Origin: Roseburia sp. 499
Lineage (GTDB): Bacteria > Bacillota > Clostridia > Lachnospirales > Lachnospiraceae
DNA length: 64,000 nt
Direction of reading: 5' to 3'
NCBI RefSeq assembly: GCF_001940225.2
Contig: NZ_CP135164.1
Span: 1,054,001-1,118,000 of the forward strand
The notes beneath the pieces were generated by a model that did no database searches, had not been told where the DNA came from, and saw only the letters and a list, made by a program, of their open reading frames with translations. This document shows, piece by piece, positions 6,716 to 51,090 of the stretch; position 1 is the stretch's first letter, and the number at the start of each line of letters is the position of its first letter. The position numbers were made by a program, and so were the translations under genes.

Positions 6716-6813
6716 ATGAATACCTCTTTTATCATTTTCTAATAACATAGTATCGGGTTAGAGGAGATTTGGCAAGTAAAAATTAATTACTCTTCCGCCT
6801 TTATTTCAGATAA

Positions 6814-7200
6814 CTATAAAAATACTTATGGAAAGTTCAAGACATGTATTTTCCTAAGTTCGTTATCTGAGGTTTTTCCTTCTTCTGCAAAGAACCTGAT
6901 ACAAAAAATCCAATTTTAATATGAATTCACACTTTTAGTTCTTCTAGACAGCAGCAACAAGAATGTTTGATAAGGGTATGCCAAAAGAACTCGGACAGAT
7001 ACACATTCAAGACAATGTTCCTCTGTCCTCAAACATCTTTCTGGCATACCCATTCATTCTTTTATGCTGCTGTGAGAAGAACACAAAGTGTTCCACATAT
7101 GAAAATCGGATTTTTTGTATTCAGGTTCTAGTGCATGAATGGAAAAACCGAGTTTCGAATTAGGGAAATCACTTAACTTCCCATGAGTATTTCTACTAGT
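6814..7200. repeat. Large imperfect palindromic element, copy A (~387 bp)
   Basis: Almost the whole stretch folds back on itself. Matching arms from outside inwards include AAATACTTATGGAAAGTT with AACTTCCCATGAGTATTT, GAGGTTTTTCC with GGAAAAACCGAG, AGAACCTGATACAAAAAAT with ATTTTTTGTATTCAGGTTCT, CAGCAGCAACAAGAATG with CATTCTTTTATGCTGCTG, and GGGTATGCCA with TGGCATACCC; the apex is near 7013. A second copy in the same orientation lies at 45940-46418. Open frames inside it are not supported as genes. It could be a MITE-like mobile hairpin or a long hairpin RNA. No transposase and no clear target duplication are visible. Confidence 0.8.
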
Positions 7201-7221
7201 ATAAAAATAAAAGCGGAATAG

Positions 7222-7250
7222 TTGTTTTAAAAGAAAAAGTATAGTAGAAT
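7222..7250 (+). promoter_or_regulatory. Sigma-A type promoter of azlCD
   Basis: TTGTTT at 7222-7227 and TAGAAT at 7245-7250 with 17-base spacing. Because the -10 box covers an ATG at 7249, translation cannot begin there, which supports the azlC start at 7282. Confidence 0.6.
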
Positions 7251-16148: not shown

Positions 16149-17834
16149 ATGAAACGAAAGATATTAGCAATGTTAGCAGTAGCATCTTTGACAGCTAGCA
16201 TAACACCGGTTATGCAGGCAAAAGCAGAAGAAACGGCACAGGAGAACACTGTTGAGGAAGGTACAGAGACAGTTGAAACAACAGAGCGTGGAGCAACGGA
16301 AATAGAAAACGGTATGTGTGGAGAAAATGTTAGTTACACATTGACCGCAGATGGAACACTTACTATTTCTGGAAGTGGAGATATGTATGATTATGAATTT
16401 CTTCTGAATCCATCGCCATTTTCTACTAATAGTAATATTAAAAAGATTGTTATTGAAAATGGAGTAACAGGTATTGGAAAATGGGCATTTTATAATGGAA
16501 GTTTAACAAGCGTTACAATACCAGAAAGTGTAACAAATATTGGTGATGCTGCATTTTGGCAGTGTGGAAGTTTGACAAGTGTCACAATACCGGGGAGTGT
16601 AACAAGTATTGGTGATTCTGCATTTTGGAGATGTAAAAATTTAACAAGTATTACCTTCTCGGAAGGAATCAAGAGTATTGGGTATGGGGCGTTTTCAGAT
16701 TGTAGTAATTTAACAAGTATTGTAATTCCGAATAGTGTAACTGAAATACAAGAAGCTGCATTTGCTAGTTGTAGCATAACAAGTATCACAATTCCACAAA
16801 ATGTAGCAAGTATTGAACCGGGAGCATTCGGACTATGTAGAAATCTGACAGATATTATAGTTGCACCGGAAAATACACACTATACATCTGTGAATGGGGC
16901 CCTGTATAATAAAGATTTGACAGAATTATTGAGATATCCAGCAGATGAGACGGAAGCAGTTATATTGCCAAGTGTAACAACTATAGCAGATTGTGCTTTT
17001 AATGGTTCAGAGGTATTAAAAGAAGTAAAAATTCCAAAAGGTGTAATCAAGATAGGTGATGCGGCTTTTAGTGGTTGTCCGGAATTAAGAGTAGTGGAAA
17101 TACCAAGCGGTGTAACAAGTATAGGGGATATGGCTTTTTCCGTATGTAATAATCTGAAAAGTGTGGTAATTCCAAGCAGTGTAACGAGTATGGGAATACA
17201 GGTATTTGGAAAGTCTATACCAGAAGAACTTACAGTCTATTGTTGTCTCGGTTCTACAGCAGAAGTATATGCCAAGGAACATAACATAAATTATACCTTA
17301 TTAAATAATACAGACGAATTGCGTTTTTATGACAGTAATGGAGATATGATAACCAATGAGTTTGTTTTTGATGGCTCTTATACATATTTTATGCAGGCAG
17401 ATGGAACGCCTATGAGAGACAGACTTACTTATCATCCGGATGGAGAACATATTATTTATCTGGATACCAATGGACATGAGGTATTTAACGATTTCCAGTA
17501 TTGCCCGAGCGTAGGATATACCTGCTACTTTGACTCCAACGGATATATTTATAAAGACCAGATTACCTTTGTTGGAGACAAGACCTATTATTTGAATCTG
17601 AATGGAAAACTGGAGAATGAAGGATGGTTTCAGTTTGGAAACGGTATGGATTATGGATATGCTAATTGGGATGGAACGCTGAATACCGGTGGATTTTCCT
17701 ATGATCCATGGGGAAGAGTGGTGTTTTATCATTGGAACGGAATGGTAGCACGAGGACTTATCACAGATGGTCAGTGGTATTATCTCATGGATGAAACAGA
17801 TGGACATTATCTGGGAAGTTTTCCGGTGAATTAG
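16149..17834 (+). CDS. LRR_5 (BspA-like) surface protein with wall-binding repeat tail
   Basis: 561 aa secreted protein. Signal peptide at residues 1-26 (ILAMLAVASLTASITPVMQAKA). Residues ~55-375 are BspA/TpLRR-type leucine-rich repeats of 22-23 residues with the recurring pattern SLTSVTIPxSVTSIGDxAFxxC. Residues ~395-561 are aromatic/Gly-rich repeats like glucan- or choline-binding wall modules (YTYFMQADGTPM, HIIYLDTNGHEVF, TYYLNLNGKLENEGW, ending GHYLGSFPVN). It probably attaches non-covalently to the cell surface and mediates binding; ligands are unknown. AAAGGAGG precedes the start. It leads a tight cluster with the next two genes (gaps of 32 and 24 bases). Confidence 0.82.
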   Translation: MKRKILAMLAVASLTASITPVMQAKAEETAQENTVEEGTETVETTERGATEIENGMCGENVSYTLTADGTLTISGSGDMYDYEFLLNPSPFSTNSNIKKIVIENGVTGIGKWAFYNGSLTSVTIPESVTNIGDAAFWQCGSLTSVTIPGSVTSIGDSAFWRCKNLTSITFSEGIKSIGYGAFSDCSNLTSIVIPNSVTEIQEAAFASCSITSITIPQNVASIEPGAFGLCRNLTDIIVAPENTHYTSVNGALYNKDLTELLRYPADETEAVILPSVTTIADCAFNGSEVLKEVKIPKGVIKIGDAAFSGCPELRVVEIPSGVTSIGDMAFSVCNNLKSVVIPSSVTSMGIQVFGKSIPEELTVYCCLGSTAEVYAKEHNINYTLLNNTDELRFYDSNGDMITNEFVFDGSYTYFMQADGTPMRDRLTYHPDGEHIIYLDTNGHEVFNDFQYCPSVGYTCYFDSNGYIYKDQITFVGDKTYYLNLNGKLENEGWFQFGNGMDYGYANWDGTLNTGGFSYDPWGRVVFYHWNGMVARGLITDGQWYYLMDETDGHYLGSFPVN

Positions 17835-45935: not shown

Positions 45936-45939
45936 GTAA

Positions 45940-46418
45940 CGATAAAAATTCTTATAAGAAGTTCTAGAAATGTATTTTCCTAAGTTCGTTGTCTGAGGTT
46001 TTTCCTTCTTCTGCAAAGAACCTGATACAAAAAATTGGAGTTTCATATTGAATCACGCTTTTAGTTCTTCTAAACAGCAGCAACAAGAATGTTCGATAAG
46101 GGTATGCCAAAAGAACTCGGACAGATACACATTTAAGCCCGTGTTTCTCTGTCCTCAAACATCTTTCTGGCATACCCATTCATTCTTTTATGCTGCTGTA
46201 AGAAGAACACAAAGTGTTCAACATATGAAACTCCAATTTTTTGTATTCAGCTTCAGTTGCATGAAGGGAAAAACCGAGTCTCGAATTAGGAAAATTAATA
46301 TCATTCTTCAAAATGCAATATTTAGACATGCTAGAAAGTGTGTCCGGCTTTGTCCTTGTCAAATCTGAATAAAATCAGAAGTAAAAAGTTTTTAACTTCT
46401 CATAAGAATTTTTATAGG
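45940..46418. repeat. Large imperfect palindromic element, copy B (~479 bp)
   Basis: Same architecture and orientation as the element at 6814-7200. Terminal arms ATAAAAATTCTTATAAGAAG and CTTCTCATAAGAATTTTTAT pair; inner arms include GAACCTGATACAAAAAATTG with CAATTTTTTGTATTCAGCTTC (partly), CAGCAGCAACAAGAATG with CATTCTTTTATGCTGCTG and GGGTATGCCA with TGGCATACCC. About 90 extra bases interrupt the right arm (roughly 46290-46380), unmatched in copy A. It lies between dapF and argS and is followed by a terminator. Short frames inside it are not credible genes. Confidence 0.8.
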
Positions 46419-46443
46419 AAGCAACAATGCAGATAAAAAATCG

Positions 46444-48396: not shown

Positions 48397-48456
48397 GGCG
48401 CCAGCCTCTAGCGAGAAGAAGCGAAGCGGAATCGAGCTAGGCGATGCGTGGAGTAT
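48397..48456. repeat. 60-bp direct repeat, copy 1
   Basis: GC-rich unit starting GGCGCCAGCCTCTAGCGAG and ending AGGCGATGCGTGGAGTAT. Its outer parts are complementary (CGCC..CTAGC with GCTAG..GGCG), closing a purine-rich loop, so each unit can form a hairpin. An identical copy lies 94 bases further on. Confidence 0.85.
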
Positions 48457-48550: not shown

Positions 48551-48610
48551 GGCGCCAGCCTCTAGCGAGAAGAAGCGAAGCGGAATCGAGCTAGGCGATG
48601 CGTGGAGTAT
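48551..48610. repeat. 60-bp direct repeat, copy 2
   Basis: Identical over all 60 bases to the unit at 48397-48456. The 94-base spacer is AT-rich and holds a small hairpin (GCACCGAAGGTGC). Copy 2 ends 33 bases before the CPBP start codon, so it would be in that gene's 5' leader. Confidence 0.85.
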
Positions 48611-49277
48611 TACGATAAACAAAAAACTAAGGAGAAAAGACTTATGAATAAAGATAAAGAAATCAGAAACATATGGAAACTTATATTTCTGCACTTGTTT
48701 CCAGGAATTGCGTTAAGCATTATGTATATATTTTTTTCGAAGGTGGGAATTTTAGAAGGATATCCCAGGGCAGTTATATTAGGAGTTTCTGCGATTTTTT
48801 CAATAATTCCTATTGAACTTGGATACCTATTTTATGTAGCAAAGAAGGAAGAAGGAACTTTTAATATATTTAAGATATTAGGTTTAAAAAGTAAGTTGAA
48901 GGTTAAAGAATTTATACTTTATTCTCTTTCATTGCTTATAGTGGGAGTGGGAATTTTAATTGCTTTAAAGCCACTTTCAAATTTCTTATTAAAAACGGTA
49001 TTTTGTTGGATTCCAAGTTGGTATAATTTTGTCCAAGATATGAGTTTGTTTAGTAAAAACTATATTATCATAGCAACTTTAGTAAGCTTTTTCATTTTTA
49101 CACTCATAGTACCAATTATTGAGGAGTTTTACTTCAGAGGATTTTTAATGACTCGAATGAAGTGGATGGGAAAATATAGTGTTTTATTTAATGTAATATT
49201 ATATTCAGTTTACCATTTTTATCAACCCTGGCTTGTTATTACAAGGATTGCTATGATGTTACCATTATACTATTTTG

Positions 49278-51090
49278 GTAACTGTTCAGAACCTCGATAA
49301 GTTCGTGTGATTTTATTTTGTATAAAACAGAGAATTTTAATTTTTTCTGTTTTGATAAAAATCGCTTTATTGTGGATAAGAGAATTTCTACTTAGAAGTT
49401 TTCTTATCTCATGTGGATAGATATATTTTTTCGCTTATATTTTATTTCAAATCCATCGATTTTCGATGATTTTGAATAGATTTAATACCATTTGTGCTCA
49501 AAAATTTAATACTTATCCACCGTCATTTTTACCATAAGCGGTTTTCTTAAGATTCGCTTATTTCCTTGAATTTCGTTATAATTATACTATAGAAATCAAG
49601 GAAAGAAGGTGGTCTGTTTGCCTATTAATATCACAATGGAATTCGTTCAACAGTTAATGGATCAGAATACTGCTTTGACAAAGCAGGTATCTGAAATGAA
49701 CGAAACAATTAAAGAGCTTAATCAGACCATCAAAGAACTTAAGGAGCAGCTCAACAAAAACTCCAAGAATAGTTCAAAACCACCTTCAAGCGATGGACTT
49801 AAGAAACCACCGGTAAATAAGAATCGTAGTCTGCGTCAAAAGTCTGGTAAGAAGCAGGGAGCTCAGAATGGCCACGATGGAACATGTCTTTCTGTTATCG
49901 CTGAACCTGACATTATAGAACCACATATGCATTCTGATTGTGATAATTGCCCTTATCATGATAGCTGTCTTGATAAAGCTTGCATCAAGGAGACTCGTCA
50001 CGAAATTGATGCTGAAGTAAATGTAAATGTCACAGCACATCAGCTTATTGTAGTAAGAAACTGTCCTCTTCATAACTGCCAGAAGGCAGGTTCTTTTCCT
50101 GCTGGCATCAAAGCAACTGTGCAGTATGGTAAAAACTTACAAGCAATGGTAGTCGCTTTTAATACTGTTGGAGCAGTAAGTATTAATCGCACTCATGAAA
50201 TACTCAGTAGTGTATTCAACATCCCACTATCAACTGGAACCATCAAAAACATGGTGACTCGATGTGCCGATGTTTTAAAGCCAACCTATGAAAAGATTTA
50301 TTGTATTATGACGAAGCTTGGGCTTATTCATTGCGATGAAACAGGAACTCGTGTTGATGGCAAGACCTGGTGGGTTCATAACGTTTCAGATATGGATTAT
50401 ACCTATCTGAGCATCCAACAGAAACGAGGGCATCTTGGAATGGATGCAATTGGAATCCTTCCATCTTTTCAGGGTATTGCTGTCCATGATTGTTGGGCTT
50501 CATACTGGAAGTATCCAGATGTGAAACATGCGGTATGCTGCGCACATCTATTGCGTGAGCTTAACGGGATAATCGAAAACTATCCCGAGCAAAAATGGGC
50601 TCTACAATTCAAAGAACTTCTTCTTGATATGAAAAAGGTAAGAGACAAAGCTCTTTTAGGCGAAAAAGATGAAATCAGCTATTATCATCGACATAAGTTT
50701 GATAAGAAATATGATGAAATCATCAAAACCGCATATGAAGAAAATCCTCTTCCTGAAGAAACCATAAAAAAGCGTGGTCGCAAGAAAAAGAGCAAGGTAT
50801 TAAATTTGATTTGCAGACTACAGAATTACAAGGCATCAGTCTGCCTATTTATAAATAACCTCTGTGTACCTTTCGATAACAACCAGGCTGAACGAGATTT
50901 AAGAATGATAAAAGTCAAAACTAAAGTATCAGGCTGTTTTCGAAGTGAAGAAGGTGCACAGGAATATTTAACAATTATGAGTTATATCGGAACCGCTCAT
51001 AAGCATGGAATCAATGCATTCACAGCGATAAAAGAATCATTAAATGGGAATGCAGATATCATCTTTGCTTAAGACGTTCTGAACAGTTAC
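49278..51090. mobile_element. IS66-family insertion sequence (1813 bp)
   Basis: Ends are the inverted repeats GTAACTGTTCAGAAC (49278-49292) and GTTCTGAACAGTTAC (51076-51090). An 8-bp target duplication CTATTTTG flanks it at 49270-49277 and 51091-51098, the length expected of IS66. It carries one TnpC-like transposase and no tnpA/tnpB, the ISBst12-like arrangement. About 330 bases before the transposase are AT-rich and non-coding; a TATAAT-like box lies near 49578-49590. Confidence 0.92.
49618..51072 (+). CDS. IS66 family transposase (TnpC)
   Basis: 484 aa DDE transposase. An N-terminal leucine-zipper-like coiled coil (MNETIKELNQTIKELKEQ), the proline/Lys-rich linker SSKPPSSDGLKKPP, a zinc-binding segment (CDNCPYHDSCLD), and the catalytic core with LIHCDETGTRV (first Asp), AVHDCWASYW (second Asp) and NNQAERDLRMIKVKTKVSG (Glu). 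The C-terminal IS66 helper segment with YLTIMSYIGTAHKHGINAF follows. The start is uncertain: TTG at 49618 or GTG at 49609 near AAGGTGG, or ATG at 49636. The gene appears intact. Confidence 0.9.
   Translation: MPINITMEFVQQLMDQNTALTKQVSEMNETIKELNQTIKELKEQLNKNSKNSSKPPSSDGLKKPPVNKNRSLRQKSGKKQGAQNGHDGTCLSVIAEPDIIEPHMHSDCDNCPYHDSCLDKACIKETRHEIDAEVNVNVTAHQLIVVRNCPLHNCQKAGSFPAGIKATVQYGKNLQAMVVAFNTVGAVSINRTHEILSSVFNIPLSTGTIKNMVTRCADVLKPTYEKIYCIMTKLGLIHCDETGTRVDGKTWWVHNVSDMDYTYLSIQQKRGHLGMDAIGILPSFQGIAVHDCWASYWKYPDVKHAVCCAHLLRELNGIIENYPEQKWALQFKELLLDMKKVRDKALLGEKDEISYYHRHKFDKKYDEIIKTAYEENPLPEETIKKRGRKKKSKVLNLICRLQNYKASVCLFINNLCVPFDNNQAERDLRMIKVKTKVSGCFRSEEGAQEYLTIMSYIGTAHKHGINAFTAIKESLNGNADIIFA

What the first reader, a model, noticed from the sequence alone, without database searches (positions are those of the whole stretch)
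6814..7200. A ~390-bp near-complete palindrome present twice in the window
The stretch pairs with itself from end to end through at least six successive arm blocks, much longer than REP, ERIC or typical MITE inverted repeats. A second copy, same orientation, lies at 45940-46418 in another intergenic region. No transposase lies inside. It could be a mobile hairpin moved in trans, or the gene of a very long hairpin RNA. I know of no described element that matches it.
Basis: seen in the sequence. Interest (0 to 1): 0.75.

Follow-up and report, generated by a model that had tools for sequence, protein, structure and literature searches.

The report
Giant palindromic mobile DNA element family
The long palindrome is one of about fourteen copies of a jumping DNA element with no genes of its own, whose whole body folds back on itself, and whose two halves stay matched in related bacteria even though the sequence itself has changed a lot.

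Summary
Window 6786-7225 and about 45936-46425 are shortened copies of a palindromic element with 14 near-complete and 2 partial copies in this 3.38-Mb genome. Relatives occur in at least 7 other species of the genus (694-702 nt in 5 of 6 species with full-length rows) and in a second genus. The family moves: in relatives, ends fit GTAACNRTTCAGCC and 31 elements show 8-bp target duplications (mean 6.55/8, 9 exact; mispaired control 2.37, none exact); a sister genome lacks the element at 7 of 7 aligned sites. No reading frame above 119 aa lies inside 14 elements tested. An IS66-family insertion sequence in the window (49278-51090) has ends fitting the same motif and an 8-bp duplication, so movement in trans by an IS66/ISBst12-type transposase is likely but unproven; five carrier genomes have no IS66 match. 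Arms are 85.5-88.7% complementary within a copy but only 61-64% identical between species; wobble counts and a copied patch favour template switching between arms over RNA selection. New variant of a known kind; the role of its conserved mismatches is open.

The parts
6786..7225 (+). Palindromic element, copy 1 (shortened; outer segments of both arms missing); limits inferred
   Evidence: Fold z about -15; alignment with full-length copies and decayed end motif on both sides; as a query 6814-7200 gives 32 hits in the own genome, both strands counted
6786..6799 (+). Left end of copy 1, decayed form of GTAACNRTTCAGCC (inferred)
7212..7225 (-). Right end of copy 1, decayed form of GTAACNRTTCAGCC (inferred)
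6899..6923 (+). One arm block of copy 1 (pairs with 7096-7120, 92% complementary)
7096..7120 (+). Partner arm block of copy 1
6936..7084 (+). Conserved apical part of copy 1 (GGGTATGCC ... GGCATACCC)
   Evidence: Covariance model R1, 133.9 bits, E 4.2e-37; opposite strand 32.8 bits
45936..46425 (+). Palindromic element, copy 2 (outer left arm mostly missing), between dapF and argS; limits inferred
   Evidence: Fold z about -15; arms 45942-45963/46394-46415 and 46025-46048/46223-46246; neighbours from Pfam; site without the element in G007
46062..46210 (+). Conserved apical part of copy 2
   Evidence: Model R1, 133.5 bits, E 5.5e-37
49278..51090 (+). IS66-family insertion sequence (1813 bp), ends GTAACTGTTCAGAAC, 8-bp target duplication CTATTTTG; candidate kind of mobiliser
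   Evidence: Ends and duplication; three copies of the transposase, 100% identical as protein, in the genome
49609..51072 (+). IS66-family transposase (487 aa)
   Evidence: PF03050 E 1.9e-47, PF20042 E 2.5e-16

Best explanation
It is a non-autonomous transposable element: a MITE-like, fold-back element whose entire body (about 620 nt in this genome, about 700 nt in most relatives) is one imperfect palindrome. Shown: in relatives a shared end motif GTAACNRTTCAGCC and 8-bp target-site duplications; in this genome dispersed copies, sites without the element in a sister species, and no frame large enough for a transposase. Inferred: an IS66-family (ISBst12-like) DDE transposase supplied in trans recognises the GTAAC ends and inserts the element with an 8-bp duplication. 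Shown: arms of one copy resemble each other far more than the same arm does between species, with paired changes on both arms. Inferred: replication template switching between the arms (one arm copied from the other) keeps them matched and also yields central deletions and flipped cores. The element is most likely selfish DNA; because over half of the copies here lie at stop codons it may act incidentally as a two-way terminator (inference only). The two window copies are old, shortened derivatives.
For: Copies: 14 near-complete plus 2 partial in the own genome. Relatives of the same design in G007, G002, G012, G005, G017, G010, G024 and in another genus, G360. Length 694-702 nt in 5 of the 6 species with full-length rows (777 in G005, which has an extra stretch). 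Target duplications: of 34 rows, 31 used (dropped: L089, L111 and the 899-nt L169 row): mean 6.55 of 8, 9 exact; mispaired control mean 2.37, none exact; lengths 6, 7, 9 and 10 give no exact pair. 24 of the 31 are the palindrome or derived from it (mean 6.88, all 9 exact ones); 7 are short elements with the same ends and another interior (mean 5.43, none exact). Sites without it: 7 of 7 sites aligned in sister G007; at L003 the flanks are contiguous there and the extra DNA here is the element plus 8 nt. The window's IS66-family IS has ends that fit GTAACNRTTCAG (11 of 12 bases identical to the G024 end) and an exact 8-bp duplication; an ISBst12-group IS is reported with ends GTGACTACTCAGCA/GTAACTGCTCAGCA and an 8-bp repeat (PMC12898284, passages). 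Gene-free: longest frames 46-119 aa in 12 full-length elements and the two window copies, six of these frames without Pfam match. Arm maintenance: within-copy complementarity 0.855-0.887 against same-arm identity between species of 0.643 (left) and 0.613 (right) on average; 59 of 122 consensus pairs with changes on both sides (36.5 in shuffles), 95.4% of cells paired (83.6% in shuffles, 37-50% slid); two-sided changes 2-9 per comparison among five paralogues against 0.45-0.96 expected; in L003 alone of 14 copies the left arm carries 24 nt identical to the complement of its own right arm, 8 or more differences from every other copy.
Against: The target duplications come from relatives and short elements; the palindromes of the own genome have decayed ends and were not in that count (only L003 is resolved, with 3 of 8 matching). 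No close relative of the window's transposase in the other 8 carrier genomes searched, only weak hits in G002 and G024; G005, G007, G010, G012 and G017 have no PF03050 match, though they are drafts. The three transposase copies here are identical while the hairpins are decayed, so this IS is probably not the original mobiliser. Pairing the listed ends of G024 by eye gave no IS-sized element. In the second genus the ends differ and no duplication was established. Absence in G007 could be loss at sites with leftover DNA (77 and 97 nt at L005 and L006). Only 3 two-sided changes against 0.9 expected in the one orthologous pair; one-sided breaks outnumber two-sided changes in every comparison. The number of further pair types is not above shuffles (100 against 97.6, reached by 146 of 500). 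In 12 of the 14 own-genome copies newly broken pairs outnumber healed mismatches (tie in L008; L005 2 against 1 is included).
Confidence: 0.72

Rival explanations
1. It is the mobile gene of a large structured RNA: pairing and internal loops are selected in a transcript of one strand.
For: Very stable folds on both strands; widespread paired changes; conserved asymmetric loops and polarity (model R1 134 bits on +, 33 on -). In the five G024 copies mismatches are skewed to one strand's wobble (14 G:U against 51 A:C on the + strand, near-identical copies).
Against: Over one element per species (7) G:U and A:C are 54 and 58; over all 17 rows 94 and 125; without G024 80 and 74; selection on one RNA strand should favour G:U on it throughout. 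No Rfam match in the window or in 8 carrier loci. Derivatives lacking the apex carry exact 8-bp duplications (L160, L162).
Confidence: 0.12
2. The folded single strand or cruciform is itself the substrate of a hairpin-recognising enzyme, as in attC sites or IS200/IS605 and REP elements.
For: Mismatches kept in 7 of 7 species representatives (columns 155/664, 156/663) or 6 of 6 scored (206-208/530-532, 302/434) inside otherwise changing arms; no overall strand preference of wobble pairs.
Against: Clean 8-bp target duplications, which fit a DDE transposase acting on double-stranded ends; forms without the apex or with one arm also show exact duplications (L160, L162, L156). The 155/664 mismatch seems not kept in G360 (read by eye). 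On average mismatched columns are not more conserved than paired ones.
Confidence: 0.08
3. The hairpin has been kept by host selection as a two-way transcription terminator or mRNA 3'-end stabiliser.
For: No open frame spans any of the 14 copies, and in 8 of 14 a neighbouring frame ends within 50 nt of, or inside, the approximate element limit (L003, L004, L006, L007, L008, L009, L010, L011).
Against: Sites without it in the sister genome; 5 of 14 lie between divergent frames (L001, L002, L005, L012, L013); a terminator needs no arms of 300 nt.
Confidence: 0.05
4. It is a degraded part of a coding transposon.
For: Its ends are of the same type as those of an IS66-family IS.
Against: Full-length elements keep the same palindromic design in several species; longest frames 46-119 aa in 14 elements, six tested without Pfam match.
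Confidence: 0.03

Closest known systems
Bacterial MITEs (Correia/NEMIS, RUP, ERIC, RPE and others; review PMC2229807, passages seen)
   Same: Multicopy, terminal inverted repeats, target duplications in several families, transcripts that would fold strongly
   Different: That review gives about 100-200 bp; here about 700 nt, palindromic over the whole length, 8-bp duplication, IS66-like ends, arms that evolve in concert
IS66 family, ISBst12 group (ISDge4, PMC12898284, passages seen)
   Same: GTAAC...TCAG-type ends and an 8-bp direct repeat
   Different: No transposase inside; palindromic body
Fold-back (FB) elements of eukaryotes (recalled)
   Same: Long inverted repeats making up most of the element
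   Different: Bacterial, IS66-like ends, conserved asymmetric motif near the apex
REP/REPIN and IS200/IS605 hairpins (PMC3116915 seen only as a search listing; rest recalled)
   Same: Mobile DNA able to form hairpins
   Different: Those are short and, as recalled, not flanked by direct target duplications; here 8-bp duplications
Template-switch homogenisation of inverted repeats (PMC8604942, passages; PMC8794818, abstract, opening and outline)
   Same: One arm copied from the other, patches of several bases, spacer flips
   Different: The cases read concern short repeats; here arms of about 300 nt inside a mobile element

Membership tests
MITE (non-autonomous, transposase-mobilised element) | Terminal inverted repeats and no transposase gene | tested here: met
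   End motif on both sides in relatives, decayed in the own genome; longest frames 46-119 aa
MITE (non-autonomous, transposase-mobilised element) | Target-site duplication of fixed length | tested here: met
   8 bp; 31 elements of relatives and short forms, mean 6.55/8, 9 exact, control 2.37
MITE (non-autonomous, transposase-mobilised element) | Dispersed copies and empty sites | tested here: met
   (7 of 7 aligned sites in G007)
MITE (non-autonomous, transposase-mobilised element) | Ends shared with an autonomous IS in the same genome | tested here: inconclusive
   The IS66-family IS of the window fits the end motif and has an 8-bp duplication, but no such IS was found in the other carrier genomes searched
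IS66 family (ISBst12 group) insertion sequence | Encodes an IS66 transposase | tested here: not met
   No frame above 119 aa in 14 palindromes; the separate IS at 49278-51090 meets it
IS66 family (ISBst12 group) insertion sequence | 8-bp target duplication and GTAAC-type ends | tested here: met
   compare PMC12898284
REP / IS200-IS605 hairpin elements | No target-site duplication (recalled) | tested here: not met
   8-bp duplications present
Known structured RNA family (Rfam 15) | Score above a family's gathering threshold | tested here: not met
   None in the window or in 8 loci; sub-threshold hit snR3, 23.8 bits against 100
Structured RNA in general | Transcription as a discrete RNA | not testable with these tools
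   No RNA-seq available

The most novel reading that the evidence does not exclude
The palindromic body is not passive filler but a conserved, structure-dependent device: a large hairpin (as single-stranded DNA or RNA) with fixed internal mismatches and repeated end-like motifs at defined places, kept by arm-to-arm copying plus selection on the loops, and carried by transposon ends that differ between genera. That would be a new class of mobile folded nucleic acid.
Probability: 0.2. Interest if true: 0.8.

Novelty: new variant of a known kind. Interest (0 to 1): 0.55.

Why it matters
Long palindromes are usually expected to be unstable in bacteria (recalled), yet here a family with arms of about 300 nt has persisted and diversified in at least eight species of one genus and in a second genus. 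It offers a natural record of copying between inverted-repeat arms at a scale above the short repeats in the papers read, with a single-copy patch, paired changes, central deletions and a core flip readable in related copies. It is also a caution: abundant compensatory changes can arise without selection on an RNA, and comparing G:U with A:C mismatches helps to separate the two.

Tried and rejected
RNA-gene reading: tested by wobble-pair asymmetry and Rfam; less likely, not excluded. The G024 copies alone are skewed (14 against 51), which the reading of no strand preference does not explain.

Known-transposon-fragment reading: no frame above 119 aa, same palindromic design at full length in several species; rejected.

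Wider hosts: a mis-typed pattern found nothing; the corrected pattern found only L068 in the genome collection (the contig of the sister genome's copy; the tool may leave out the window's own genome) and nothing in viral contigs. A looser viral pattern gave 21 loci, none convincing with model R1 (4 matches, best E 0.11). Plasmids (with a G024 element) and phages (with a G017 element): no match. R1 over 397 family genomes: own and G360 only; over 398 phylum genomes: own only. At most 7 candidates per genome were scored there and filters were strict, so absences are soft; other carriers of the genus were not among the genomes drawn.

Short matches set aside: G059 (24 nt, read) and G014 (query 282-321, the end of a different hairpin element). 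Of the end-like 13-mers of the own genome outside known copies I read ten loci; nine gave no palindromic element, and L039 holds a small hairpin with similar ends.

Conservation of mismatched against paired columns is about the same on average (0.70-0.78 against 0.77-0.78), so particular mismatches, not mismatches in general, are conserved; this weakens the novel case.

An inverted-repeat scan of the IS66 loci L082-L111 with GT ends and a duplication of 7 or more found one pair, of another end type (GTAAGCG, L082); it did not find an IS66 with the hairpin's ends in other genomes.

Literature searches without a matching element: (open-access library only). Seen: passages of PMC2229807, PMC12898284 and PMC8604942; abstract, opening and outline of PMC8794818. 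Others were seen as listings only.

Full report
What is there. The stretch 6814-7200 pairs with itself end to end, and so does 45940-46418. Folding energies are about 15 standard deviations below dinucleotide shuffles on both strands for both copies. Four full-length copies here measure 614-624 nt (L002, L003, L005, L007). The window's copy 1 (6786-7225) lacks matching outer segments of both arms, and copy 2 (about 45936-46425) most of the outer left arm; these limits are inferred.

Copies and relatives. The query 6814-7200 finds 14 near-complete copies (86-100% identity, 74-100% of the query) and two partial ones in the 3.38-Mb genome (32 hits because each palindrome also matches on the other strand). 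No open frame of 80 aa or more spans any of the 14; three copies (L008, L009, L010) overlap the edge of a frame, given my approximate limits. The sister genome G007, whose contig is the record JAAYPT010000072.1, 'Clostridiales bacterium', holds an orthologous copy at the site of L002 and a centrally deleted remnant at the site of the window's copy 1. With other queries, elements of the same design appear in G002 (62 partly overlapping matches), G012, G005, G017, G010 and G024, so at least 8 of the 29 same-genus genomes searched carry it. A covariance model of the apical part finds it in one further genus (G360) among 397 family genomes, and only in the own among 398 phylum genomes (at most 7 candidates per genome were scored).

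It is a mobile element. Taking end pairs found by motif alone (34 rows; 3 dropped, L089, L111 and the 899-nt L169 row), 31 elements have flanks that match as 8-bp direct repeats: mean 6.55 of 8, 9 exact, against 2.37 and none for mispaired flanks; lengths of 6, 7, 9 or 10 give no exact pair. Twenty-four of these are the palindrome or derived from it (mean 6.88, all 9 exact); 7 are short elements with the same ends and other interiors (mean 5.43). None is a palindrome of the own genome, whose ends have decayed too far for the motif. For the own genome the evidence is the sister genome: 12 of the 14 sites were looked for (L001 and L002 were known to be shared) in three genomes, of which I analysed G007. 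Both flanks were found together for 9 (L003, L005, L006, L007, L009, L010, L011, L013, L014); for L004, L008 and L012 only one flank. Seven of the nine were aligned and none has room for the element, with at most 97 nt between the flank alignments (L003, L005, L006, L009, L010, L013, L014). L011 looks empty from spacing alone and L007 is unresolved. At L003 the flanks are contiguous in G007, and the extra DNA here is the element plus 8 nt; that 8-mer matches its supposed partner at only 3 of 8 places, as expected only if it is old. At L005 and L006 leftover DNA (77 and 97 nt) means that loss is not excluded.

What moves it. Frames inside 12 full-length elements and the two window copies are at most 46-119 aa long, and six of them have no Pfam match. 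The window itself holds an IS66-family insertion sequence at 49278-51090 with ends GTAACTGTTCAGAAC, an exact 8-bp duplication CTATTTTG and a 487-aa transposase (PF03050). Its first 12 bases fit the palindrome's end motif, and 11 of 12 equal the G024 end. An ISBst12-group member is described with ends GTGACTACTCAGCA/GTAACTGCTCAGCA and an 8-bp repeat (PMC12898284, passages). This makes mobilisation in trans by an IS66-type transposase the best guess. Against it: close relatives of this transposase are missing from the other eight carrier genomes searched, five of them have no PF03050 match at all, and the three copies in this genome are identical as proteins and so look younger than the hairpins. 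Derivatives without the apex (323, 125 and 67 nt) and a one-arm derivative (326 nt) have duplications of their own (8, 8, 7 and 8 of 8), so the two ends seem enough for movement.

Why it stays a palindrome. Within a copy the arms are 85.5-88.7% complementary; between species the same arm is on average only 64.3% (left) or 61.3% (right) identical (seven representatives). On the alignment of 12 full-length elements 95.4% of cells pair (83.6% in shuffles, 37-50% slid), 59 of 122 pairs have changes on both sides (36.5 in shuffles), and the covariation score is 0.402 against 0.189 shuffled and at most 0.134 slid; the number of further pair types is not above shuffles (100 against 97.6, reached by 146 of 500) (the structure came from these sequences, which favours it). 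Selection on one RNA strand should favour G:U over A:C mismatches. Over one element per species they are 54 and 58; over all 17 rows 94 and 125; without G024 80 and 74; but the five near-identical G024 copies are skewed, 14 against 51. In nine G024 copies there are 58 one-sided and 20 two-sided variant cells in paired columns, the latter at 6 distinct column pairs. Among five paralogues of the own genome two-sided changes number 2-9 per comparison against 0.45-0.96 expected if independent, beside 9-18 one-sided breaks; the single orthologous comparison gives 3 against 0.91. L003, alone of the 14 copies, carries in its left arm a 24-nt stretch identical to the complement of its own right arm; every other copy differs from it there at 8 or more places. 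One G024 copy (L140) has its core flipped relative to its outer arms (read by eye). Patches, double changes and flips are what template switching between inverted-repeat arms is described to produce (PMC8604942, passages; PMC8794818, abstract). Against a strong version: in nearly all own-genome copies newly broken pairs outnumber healed mismatches, so maintenance there is slow or has stopped.

What is unexplained. A few mismatches are kept in every species representative that could be scored (columns 155/664 and 156/663, 7 of 7; 206-208/530-532 and 302/434, 6 of 6), and the apex keeps an asymmetric motif (GGGTATGCC-CTGAAACTC ... CTCAGACAG-TCA-GGCATACCC; decayed in the own genome) that recurs in complementary form lower in the stem and resembles the element's own end (ACAGTTCA; read by eye from the alignments). 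In the second genus the lower and apical motifs persist but the 155/664 mismatch seems not to (by eye). On average mismatched columns are no more conserved than paired ones. These motifs may be extra transposase sites, relics of nested ends, or part of a functional fold. I commit to selfish mobile DNA as the most likely nature, with the conserved loops as the open question.

Comparison. It works like a MITE and is filed as a new variant of that kind: palindromic over its whole length, about 700 nt where the review read gives about 100-200 bp (PMC2229807, passages), with IS66-type ends and arms that evolve in concert. It is not an IS66 element (no transposase) and not a REP/IS200-type hairpin (it has direct target duplications). 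Searches of the open-access library for such an element found none; subscription papers and ISfinder were not searched.

Noticed in passing
window 48602-51090: The IS66-family IS at 49278-51090 appears to be inserted in a CAAX-protease-like gene (PF02517), whose reading frame ends inside the IS; the genome has two further copies of the transposase, identical as protein.
   Followed up: partly
window 48404-48456 and 48558-48610: A 53-bp direct repeat, two copies about 150 bp apart, not part of the palindromes.
   Followed up: no
L143:1351-1515 and L149:1501-1692 (own genome); L144, L147, L157, L163, L169 (G012): Short elements (163-230 nt) with ends fitting GTAACNRTTCAGCC but different multi-stem interiors: the ends define a wider family of non-autonomous elements.
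   Followed up: partly
G024 loci L117-L162: Elements fall into size classes of about 700, 500, 325 and 120 nt, several with their own 8-bp duplications, as if shortened forms were moved again.
   Followed up: partly
L080 and L119: A different hairpin element with ends GGGGCTGTCGCACTAA, in L080 apparently inserted at the right end of a palindromic element.
   Followed up: no
L178 (G360): In the second genus one copy is flanked by an inverted repeat CCGCTGCCTTTGTT/AACAAAGGCAGCGG, as if it sat in the loop of a terminator.
   Followed up: no
L039 (G000:C1:1599269-1599304): A small hairpin with AAGCA/CTTATGG-type arms like the outer stem of the palindromes, perhaps a remnant.
   Followed up: no
window 16496-16648: A 69-bp tandem repeat (2.2 copies) inside the open reading frame 16149-17834.
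   Followed up: no
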